Shown here one piece after another: positions 33,101-36,100 of a DNA stretch of 64,000 bases. Position 1 is the stretch's first letter, and every line of letters starts with the position of its first letter. Under the pieces are notes generated by a model. That model had not been told where the DNA came from. It made no database searches and saw only the letters and a list, made by a program, of their open reading frames with translations. Position numbers and translations under genes: made by a program. Source of the DNA: Patagioenas fasciata (taxonomy: Eukaryota > Chordata > Aves > Columbiformes > Columbidae); assembly GCF_037038585.1 (NCBI RefSeq), contig NC_092525.1, positions 29,662,367-29,726,366 on the forward strand. The letters run 5' to 3'.

Positions 33101-36100
33101 AATAAACAGTGAAACAAAGATATAATTCATCCCTCCCCATTCAGCATACAGAAGATATACTCAGTTTAACAGAGGAATTGCTATTCACATGATCATAATT
33201 TTCTCAATCACAAAAGAATTATTGAAAAATATACTACAAATACACTAACAAAAGCAACCTCAGAGAAACCCTCAAAAATAAGCACTCCAATTCCCACCAT
33301 TCTCTCTCACTCGTTCCTGTAAAACAGGAGCTTAGGAGAATAGGTTAACAAGCAGAGACAGAACCACTTATAGTAGCTGGAATGAAAGAATCAATACAGC
33401 TTTAAGTAGCTTTATGTACTTTTTCCCTTGAAAGACAGAAGCTTGAACGTCAGAGGGAGTTGTTATACAATTTTATTCTGTGCATGAAAACTTGAAGATC
33501 TGAAATATACTCTTCCCAAATATCACTCAGGAAGAACATCCAGACTGCACCAGGCCCTCCCATGGTTCAGAAATATCAATTCAGAAAACATTCAATGTAA
33601 ACTTTGTTTTTTTTTTTTTGTTTAGGTGCTCACCTGAATTGGACATTCATTATCATGCGTAATATCCATAAACAGTGCATGAGCAATAGCTGGCATCAAA
33701 GGCCTCAAACGTGGCTGAACAAAAGAGCCAACAGGTTCACCTCCAAAACGATAAACTAACCTTCCCTCTTCATGGCTATTATAAGCAGTCATTGCCTCTA
33801 AAGAACAAAATACGTAAGTGTTTGCATAAGAATAACTACCATAGAGTACAGCATGCACGAAGATGTTAATGCAGCATTTGACAGTTGTTATTTTGCTCAA
33901 TCACAAAAAAAAACAAAAACAAAAAACAATCACATATAACTATATTCCCCAATGTGGATCTATAACCTTGGAGTATTCCATTTACTACAACATATTAAGG
34001 TATAAAAAGCTAAGGGAAAAAAAAAAAAAAAAGAGAAAAAAAAGCAGAGATCTAAAACTGTTTCTCGTAGGCTTTAAGAAATGTGACATAACTCAGACAT
34101 GATGGATCACCTGCATTGTAGAACGGTGCTATAACTTTTTCTCTCACTAGAATAAGAGTGAAATATTTAACCTGTAAACTAATGCAGAATCTCTCCTCTT
34201 ACAGCTAGTACAGTATTTTTTGCTGAGTATCAAAAAGTTGCAATACAAAACCTGTACTTCCCATTACATGGTGTATGAAATTAAAAGTGCATAATCCAGA
34301 GGAAACCTTTGGCTTGGAAAAAGCATGTCATCTATAATCTCTCTTTGGAAAGAGACCACACACGCAGCAAGCCTACCTCTTATTAAGGAGGTAATGCCCA
34401 GCCTATTCACAAAGATATTGTCCAGCTCCTCATTTCCCGTGAACAGTTCAGCCACTATATACAAATCGGCTCGCAATTTTCTAGCTGTGTCCAGCATGTA
34501 CTGCAAAAAGCACAGCCAAAAAAGCCACAAAAAGGGGAAAGGCAGATATAAAAAAGGACAAGTTTCAAAGCTAGGCAGGGATTGGACAATGGGAAAATGC
34601 CATGCAGCAAAGACAAACAGAAAGCCAAAAGTAAGGAACAAAAAAGTTGTTACACAGAAGAGGACACACAAGCATAAGGAAAATCAAGAATCAGCATAGA
34701 ACACAGGAGAAATTAAACAGGAAACAAAGAAGAGATAATTGCATAAGCAAAGAACACAAATATGTAAGAAAAACAAAAAAAAAGCATAACAATGTTAGTT
34801 TCACATTAAAAACTCCAAACCACACATGAAAATCCTACATAATTTTCAATTGCTTATTGTACCTCTAATCAGGCTCGTAATTCCCAGTCGGTTGACAAAA
34901 ACATTGTCAATGTACTCACTGCCCGTGAAGAGTTCAGCTATCACATAAAGATTAGGTCTGACTGATCTGGCTGTTGCTAGCATCTCCTACAGATCACAAT
35001 ACATTTTTAATACAAGAAATCCATTGTCAGCTTTGTATATGCAATCATTAACATGTCTTAATCAAACATAAATGAGACATTTATATATGCAGTTCATTAA
35101 AAACAAAATCCATAACAGGTAAGATTCATAAAACCATCTTTATATTCTACAGAGATTATGTAGGGACTGAGAAATTTTCTGAAGACTTTGAAAACAAAGT
35201 TGTCATCAGCTTAAACAAAATTGCAACTCAAAATGCAAGAACAAAGGCTGAATAAAAGAGATACCTCTTAAGGTAAGAAATCTGAGTAAGACTTCAGATT
35301 AAGCCTTTGAAGTTACCATTCCAAAAACAGTAGCAATAAACAAAAGAACAGTAGAAGTTTTGAACTGGCTGCATTTAAGAGCCACTTTTTGTGAGCAAAT
35401 CAACGTGTTTTAGAGAGCTCTCCATAGATTCGGGTAAGCTCTGTAACCAAGCTGAAACTAAGCACTAACAAGTTGCACTACATGAATCTATTTAAAGCTA
35501 ATTTACCAAATAAGTACAATTTCTGGATGTAGTCATCTCCATGGTAAACAATAAGCACTATGTCAGCTAAATTGGAGAAATAAAAGATACAATGGCTACA
35601 CCACTCTAACTGTTTAAAGTAGTTGAAACCCTATCTAAACATCAGCAGTCAAAACTTGGCTTATGCTAAGAGGAAGATTCATTCACACCTGAACTCTGCC
35701 ATGTAGATGCTGCAGATTTTGTCACAACAGTGCAAGAACTTATTTCACAGACAGAACCTGCTTTACAGCAAACACGATTAATTTTGCGTACCTCAGCTAC
35801 ATGAATTGGTGTTGAGTGACAGTTGTCAAGACGAACACCATGGAAATATTTGGCAGTGATTTCAGTGTATTTTTTCATATGTGCCCAGAGGTATGGGCAG
35901 TCTTCAGGTTTATTACCATAACGCAGTTTCACACTGTCTCCCCAACAAATAAGCTCTCTTCTCAAGTAAACATTTGAACCTGTAAGAGAAATTCACTGTA
36001 GTGTGTATATATATGTAGTATAGACCATGCACCAAAGTTAATAAGTGGTATTTCAACTTCTACTGCTGAAGAGCAAAAAGCCACTGTGACGGAGAGGAAA

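What the first reader, a model, noticed from the sequence alone, without database searches (positions are those of the whole stretch)
34377..34986. Tandem duplicated, frame-enforced mutually exclusive exons in the AGL active site
Two exons of exactly 124 nt (34863-34986 and 34377-34500) both encode the block around AELFTG, whose Glu is the expected transferase acid/base. They share 29 of 41 residues but only about 68% of nucleotides. Many differences are synonymous, so both copies look old and under protein-level selection. Because 124 is not a multiple of 3, exon 12a joined to 12b hits TAG after six codons, and skipping both gives TGA at the third codon of exon 13. Exactly one copy must be used. 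Swapping changes residues flanking the catalytic Glu (for example Tyr/Glu, Asp/Ala, Glu/Tyr), which could tune acceptor choice or tissue-specific activity. I do not recall such a switch described for AGL.
Basis: partly seen in the sequence, partly recalled or inferred. Interest (0 to 1): 0.88.

Follow-up and report, generated by a model that had tools for sequence, protein, structure and literature searches.

The report
Either-or exon pair in glycogen debrancher
This bird's gene for the glycogen-debranching enzyme carries two alternative versions of the exon that encodes a catalytic residue, and the less familiar version is conserved in many other vertebrates, which points to an overlooked second form of an enzyme known from human disease.

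Summary
In detail: two 124-nt exons of AGL (12a 34986-34863, 12b 34500-34377, minus strand), same phase, 29/41 residues and 84/124 bases alike; joining both or neither gives an early stop. 12a is no relic. It is 40/41 identical to an annotated Xenopus isoform, while the rest of the protein is 79%. Listed proteins with 12a include coelacanth, lungfish, gar, bichir, teleosts, amphibians, turtle, lizard, alligator and wallaby. Two Xenopus tropicalis proteins differ at 11 of 1532 positions, all inside exon 12: an exact swap. Ten fish-like 12a proteins lie unbroken on 4.9-7.1 kb contigs, which I read as spliced transcripts. The intron between the copies holds the window's longest AG-free run (240 nt; 0 of 300 simulations reach it) with ACTAAC near its start, as in OGDH and tropomyosin, but one AG interrupts it. 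Seven literature searches aimed at it found no description. Not shown: 12a RNA in any bird (22 of 22 listed bird representatives are 12b), tissue pattern, enzymology, status in placental mammals. Verdict: a real, ancient mutually exclusive exon pair.

The parts
35792..35979 (-). AGL coding exon 11, ends in phase 0 with GAG
34863..34986 (-). AGL coding exon 12a, 124 nt, [41 protein letters not shown]; third-lowest donor score of 33 and second-lowest acceptor pyrimidine content of 33 in this gene model
34501..34862 (-). intron between the copies, 362 nt, 68.5% pyrimidine (0 of 968 same-size windows of the other AGL introns reach this)
34794..34799 (-). ACTAAC, possible distant branch point or STAR-protein site; its branch-point-like A is 68 nt from the 12a donor
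   Evidence: function inferred
34573..34812 (-). 240-nt AG-free run, longest on either strand of the window (next 132); the AG at 34572-34571 ends it, 70 nt before exon 12b
34377..34500 (-). AGL coding exon 12b (canonical type), 124 nt, [41 protein letters not shown]
33634..33797 (-). AGL coding exon 13, starts in phase 1; out of frame after 11 alone or after 12a+12b

Best explanation
Coding exon 12 of AGL was duplicated in tandem before ray-finned and lobe-finned vertebrates split, and the two copies are spliced as alternatives, one at a time. This gives two debranching enzymes that differ only in 41 residues of the 4-alpha-glucanotransferase (GH13-like) domain around its acid/base Glu555 (human numbering). 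Shown: the anatomy, the frame trap, the age and conservation of 12a, and an exact isoform pair in Xenopus. Strongly suggested: spliced 12a transcripts in fish. Inferred: (1) only single-copy products are productive because of reading frame and nonsense-mediated decay, helped by a tropomyosin/OGDH-like intron in which a branch point near the 12a donor and a long pyrimidine tract discourage 12a-12b joining and give U-binding and perhaps STAR-family proteins a landing place; (2) 12a is the regulated exon, since its splice sites are weak; (3) the 12a protein keeps catalysis but alters the acceptor (main-chain) side of the transferase site, where the acidic residue at 562 becomes Leu, Gln, Tyr, Val, Arg or Phe in nearly all 12a peptides, just after the kept Phe557/Gly559 cleft.
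For: Same length, phase and borders; 29/41 residues with dS 1.57. 12a 40/41 with Xenopus against 79.1% for the rest, only 1 of 1415 other 41-residue windows as conserved. One branch for 75 of 78 rows labelled 12a, 98/89. Xenopus tropicalis P0033 and P0089 identical outside exon 12. Ten unbroken 12a frames of 1088-1536 residues on contigs of 4884-7143 nt. Tandem 12a then 12b in read-through ORFs of five fish-like sequences, 227-270 nt apart. AG-free run and pyrimidine tract. E555, F557, G559 kept in 67 of 67 distinct 12a and 28 of 28 distinct 12b peptides.
Against: 22 of 22 bird cluster representatives listed are 12b, although clusters at 90% identity can hide 12a isoforms. Six gene models contain both copies. 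The AG-free run ends at an AG 70 nt before 12b, and 68 nt exceeds the under-50-nt steric criterion. 12a is not exceptional in every comparison: against Gopherus 387 of 1415 windows are as conserved, Podarcis 247, alligator 179, coelacanth 128. Six of the ten transcript-like contigs share one exon-12 peptide, so they are not independent. Nothing on regulation or activity was measured.
Confidence: 0.87

Rival explanations
1. 12a works in fish, amphibians and some reptiles but is a recently silenced relic in birds.
For: 22 of 22 bird cluster representatives listed are 12b; 12a has a weak donor and weak acceptor tract here.
Against: 12a in this bird is an open frame with AG/GT sites and 40/41 identical to Xenopus; residues 2-41 are identical in P0173, an ORF on 97 contigs with a bird-like intron read-through.
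Confidence: 0.07
2. 12a mainly lowers AGL output: its inclusion leads to frame-shifted 12a+12b or mis-spliced RNA that decays, and its peptide matters little.
For: 124 nt is not a multiple of three, so double inclusion gives a stop; some gene models join both copies.
Against: A poison exon need not keep its peptide; here the peptide is 40/41 conserved to Xenopus and the two copies show dN 0.26 against dS 1.57. Full-length 12a frames exist on transcript-sized contigs.
Confidence: 0.04
3. Recent duplication, gene-conversion copy or assembly artefact.
For: None found; the genome search for further 12a copies did not complete.
Against: dS about 1.6, the same order in fish-like ORFs, the same class in annotated proteins of many species.
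Confidence: 0.01

Closest known systems
OGDH exons 4a/4b (PMC7969005; abstract, passages and part 1 of the Discussion seen)
   Same: Ancient tandem exon pair in an enzyme of energy metabolism; combined length not a multiple of three; intervening intron with long pyrimidine tract and AG exclusion zone; CUAAC-like motifs near the upstream donor.
   Different: OGDH branch points, regulators and isoform function (Ca2+ sensitivity) were measured. Here the intron is longer (362 nt against 118-131 nt in birds and mammals for OGDH), an AG lies 70 nt before the second exon, and nothing is measured.
Alpha-tropomyosin (TPM1) mutually exclusive exons (recalled; cited in PMC7969005 as Smith and Nadal-Ginard 1989)
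   Same: Unusual branch point far upstream of the second exon, with a long pyrimidine tract.
   Different: Branch point not mapped here; the candidate is 68 nt from the donor.
Human tandem-duplicated exon substitutions (PMC9741552 and PMC4465641 passages; PMC5740500 passages)
   Same: Adjacent homologous exons, ancient origin, frame-enforced in most clusters.
   Different: AGL is not named in the main text of any of the three; their supplementary lists were not seen.
Glycogen debranching enzyme structures (human 8zeq; Candida glabrata 5d06/5d0f; PMC4837477 passages and section 9)
   Same: Exon 12 covers the acid/base Glu and the Phe/Gly of the proposed main-chain cleft, kept in both copies.
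   Different: The human chain is of the 12b type; no chain of the 12a type was among the 8 sequences matched up to E 10.

Membership tests
Mutually exclusive tandem-duplicated exons | Adjacent homologous exons of equal length and phase | tested here: met
   124 nt each, phase 0 to 1, 29/41 residues
Mutually exclusive tandem-duplicated exons | Transcripts or proteins with one copy or the other from one gene | tested here: met
   Xenopus tropicalis P0033/P0089; not tested in this bird
Mutually exclusive tandem-duplicated exons | Joint inclusion or joint skipping absent or unproductive | tested here: met
   Unproductive by frame in this window; RNA absence not testable, and six gene models hold both
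Mutually exclusive tandem-duplicated exons | Regulated use between tissues, stages or states | not testable with these tools
   No RNA-seq; AGL is among 131 differentially spliced genes in overfed goose liver, event type not given in the text seen (PMC12785810)
Distant-branch-point / mega-pyrimidine-tract exon pairs (TPM1, OGDH type) | Long AG-free pyrimidine-rich tract in the intervening intron | tested here: met
   240 nt AG-free; 68.5% pyrimidine intron
Distant-branch-point / mega-pyrimidine-tract exon pairs (TPM1, OGDH type) | Branch point within about 50 nt of the upstream donor | tested here: not met
   Best consensus candidate is at 68 nt; criterion from PMC5740500; real branch point not mapped
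Distant-branch-point / mega-pyrimidine-tract exon pairs (TPM1, OGDH type) | No AG between the distant branch point and the true 3' splice site | tested here: not met
   AG at 34572-34571, 70 nt before exon 12b; a similar interruption is described for OGDH of Mola mola
Glycogen debranching enzyme, transferase domain | Acid/base Glu and main-chain cleft residues present in both isoforms | tested here: met
   E555, F557, G559 in 67 of 67 distinct 12a and 28 of 28 distinct 12b peptides

The most novel reading that the evidence does not exclude
Most non-placental bony vertebrates make two functionally distinct debranching enzymes from one AGL gene by a splice switch in the transferase active site; the 12a form is the more strictly conserved of the two, and placental mammals have lost or silenced it, so that the biology of AGL studied through human and mouse disease has missed half of the ancestral system.
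Probability: 0.35. Interest if true: 0.78.

Novelty: new member of a known kind. Interest (0 to 1): 0.62.

Why it matters
AGL is the enzyme of glycogen storage disease III and is usually treated as one bifunctional protein. A second active-site version, nearly unchanged between frog and bird, would mean that vertebrates tune the transferase step by splicing. Both forms can be expressed and compared now, and retention or loss in mammals can be read from public genomes and RNA.

Tried and rejected
An intron too short to splice was rejected as the cause of exclusivity in this bird: it is 362 nt. Filing the pair under the distant-branch-point class was rejected because two tested features fail (68 nt; interrupting AG), although the tract is extraordinary.

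A fish hint (Leu-Thr in the read-through frame, hence YTNAC, about 24 nt into the intron) was noted but not used. That filter took 64 of the 108 rows with AELF among the 109 proteins; the other 44, mostly invertebrate or other rows but also a few fish rows, were dropped.

The tree rests on 41 columns. Three rows labelled 12a by my identity rule fell outside the 75-row branch: P0079 (Callorhinchus), a P0004 segment (catfish, 12b by position) and P0247 (probably invertebrate). Rows unlike both window exons were filtered out before. In one search the classes were split mainly by residue 553, so the I/V difference there is by construction, and the outgroup of 7 includes one divergent fish row (P0160).

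Loss in placental mammals is not settled: 9 of 9 named placental representatives in the 120 rows are 12b, but so are 22 of 22 bird rows, and this bird has an intact 12a. One search, scored on the 12a exon alone (120 of 382 rows listed), shows no placental name. Sharks and lampreys are open; the one Callorhinchus row is 12b-like. Rfam gave nothing at 33500-36100. Structure prediction was not run: spliced isoforms exceed 1200 residues and the tool gives no distances.

Literature: ten searches; seven of them aimed at AGL with alternative or duplicated exons. None listed a report of alternative exons 12 in AGL. Subscription papers and supplementary tables were not seen.

Full report
What is there. 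The window carries an AGL (glycogen debranching enzyme) gene on the minus strand, modelled as 33 coding exons between 49438 and 15005, plus one extra copy of coding exon 12. Two junctions of the model (6/7 and 15/16) look wrong and do not touch the finding. The genome is 1.45 Gb and unnamed. Among 172 hits, those over 1000 residues closest to the 12b isoform are birds (96.6% to Leptosomus discolor P0019 and to Pelecanus crispus P0022), so I take the window to be from a bird.

The two exons. Exon 12a is 34986-34863 and exon 12b 34500-34377, each 124 nt, phase 0 in and phase 1 out, flanked by AG and GT. They share 84 of 124 bases and 29 of 41 residues; NG86 gives dN 0.26 and dS 1.57, and none of 20000 random mutation sets of equal size keeps 29 residues. 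Joining both gives VHAGHS and a stop, joining neither gives R Q and a stop.

Not a relic. A search with the 12a isoform (residues 480-660; 120 of 2006 hits listed) and one with the wallaby 12a region (120 of 382 listed) found proteins whose exon-12 segment is of the 12a class in Xenopus, Ambystoma, Rana, Latimeria, Protopterus, gar, bichir, many teleosts, alligator, Gopherus, Podarcis, Crotalus and wallaby (segments). Against Xenopus tropicalis the window's 12a is 40/41 identical, the rest of the protein 1177/1488 (79.1%), and 1 of 1415 other 41-residue windows is as conserved; 12b against the Xenopus 12b is 32/41. In other comparisons 12a stands out less: 387 of 1415 windows are as conserved against Gopherus, 247 against Podarcis, 179 against alligator, 128 against coelacanth. 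In a 41-column tree 75 of 78 rows labelled 12a form one branch with 98/89 support (the other three are told under Tried and rejected).

Exact swap and expression. Two Xenopus tropicalis proteins (P0033, P0089) differ at 11 of 1532 positions, all between 538 and 574, inside exon 12. Ten representatives known only from sources tagged lgn or jgi, on contigs of 4884-7143 nt, hold unbroken 12a frames of 1088-1536 residues (P0067, P0107-P0111, P0131, P0140, P0153, P0161). The window's gene has 32 coding introns, so I read these contigs as spliced transcripts; six of the ten share one exon-12 peptide, the one also seen in tuna (P0112, P0156), so they are not independent. Three lgn contigs hold the 12b class (P0060, P0074, P0104).

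Tandem order elsewhere. A search for short proteins (109 hits, all listed) returned read-through ORFs. In five of them the frame runs from 12a through the intron into a shifted reading of 12b (VHAG...) about 227-270 nt later: P0176, P0181 and P0220 with a long match, P0207 and P0211 with a short one; a sixth printed match, early in P0207, is chance. P0173, on 97 contigs, has residues 2-41 of the window's 12a and a read-through that resembles the window's intron and stops where the window has AAC TAA, compatible with a kept ACTAAC. That P0173 is a bird is inferred. The invertebrate proteins listed have one segment of this kind, mostly starting with Tyr, so 12b keeps the ancestral Tyr538.

How exclusivity may work. 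Reading frame and nonsense-mediated decay (established knowledge) suffice to leave only single-copy proteins. In addition the intron between the copies is 68.5% pyrimidine, above all 968 same-size windows of the other AGL introns, and holds a 240-nt AG-free run, the longest on either strand of the window (next 132); in 300 Markov simulations of the AGL introns the longest was 194. ACTAAC (34799-34794) lies in its first part, its branch-point-like A 68 nt from the 12a donor; 0 of 32 other donors of the gene have ACTAAC within 120 nt. This resembles OGDH 4a/4b, where distant branch points near the upstream donor and a long pyrimidine tract enforce exclusivity and CUAAC motifs are discussed as STAR-protein sites (PMC7969005, abstract, passages and part 1 of the Discussion). 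It differs by distance (68 nt against an under-50-nt steric criterion, PMC5740500 passages) and by an AG 70 nt before exon 12b; the OGDH paper describes such an interruption in Mola mola. The branch-point model is therefore a hypothesis. 12a has the third-lowest donor score of 33 (recalled frequencies; one of the two lower, exon 6, is a doubtful junction) and the second-lowest acceptor pyrimidine content of 33, which fits a regulated exon.

What the swap may do. Exon 12 encodes the acid/base Glu (Candida Glu564, activity lost on mutation; PMC4837477 passages). Phe566 and Gly568 of that enzyme belong to a cleft that might bind the substrate main chain (section 9 read); they are kept in 67 of 67 distinct 12a and 28 of 28 distinct 12b peptides. 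Just beyond, human position 562 is Glu or Asp in 28 of 28 12b peptides, and in 12a Leu 46, Gln 6, Tyr 5, Val 3, Arg 2, Phe 2, Glu 2 (66 of 67 shown); 538 is Tyr in 27 of 28 12b and 2 of 67 12a; 541 is Asp in 27 of 28 12b but also in 25 of 67 12a. I infer a change in acceptor binding. No solved chain of the 12a type was found; the human one, 8zeq, is 12b.

Is it known. AGL is not named in the main text of three catalogues of such exons, and seven searches aimed at it listed no description. Names such as 'isoform X1' and 'isoform X2' in the hits show that public annotation already holds 12a forms. One paper lists AGL among 131 differentially spliced genes in overfed goose liver; the event type is not given in the text seen (PMC12785810, passages and section 2.7). 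I rate it a new member of a known kind, in an unexpected place.

Limits. No RNA from any bird was available, 22 of 22 bird rows are 12b, placental status is open, and the searches of the own genome for further copies with 12a did not complete.

Noticed in passing
39573-40111 (-): Exon 6/7 junction of the AGL model is doubtful: poor donor (TAT|GTTGCC) and four extra residues (CKMS) against human; likely a wrong junction in my model or an alternative site.
   Followed up: no
32368-32751 (-): Exon 15/16 junction of the printed model is wrong by a few codons; the very short intron has a second acceptor (ttctag) that restores the human-like VYVDQ.
   Followed up: partly
34377-34500 (-): The 3' part of bird 12b ([10 protein letters not shown]) matches 12a and invertebrates, while human, Bos and turtle 12b read TRLGISSLIR or TRLGLSSLIR; retention, convergence or old gene conversion.
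   Followed up: partly
48001-52000 and about 59800-60060: G+C-rich stretch of 0.517 around the AGL first exon, and a second G+C-rich, CpG-rich stretch near 59.8 kb that may be the start of a neighbouring gene.
   Followed up: no
related proteins P0002, P0003, P0004, P0006, P0008, P0121: Public gene models that contain both 12a and 12b in one protein; in Rhineura and Varanus the pyrimidine-rich intron end (WLCFLQ) is read as coding. Probably annotation errors caused by the exon pair.
   Followed up: partly
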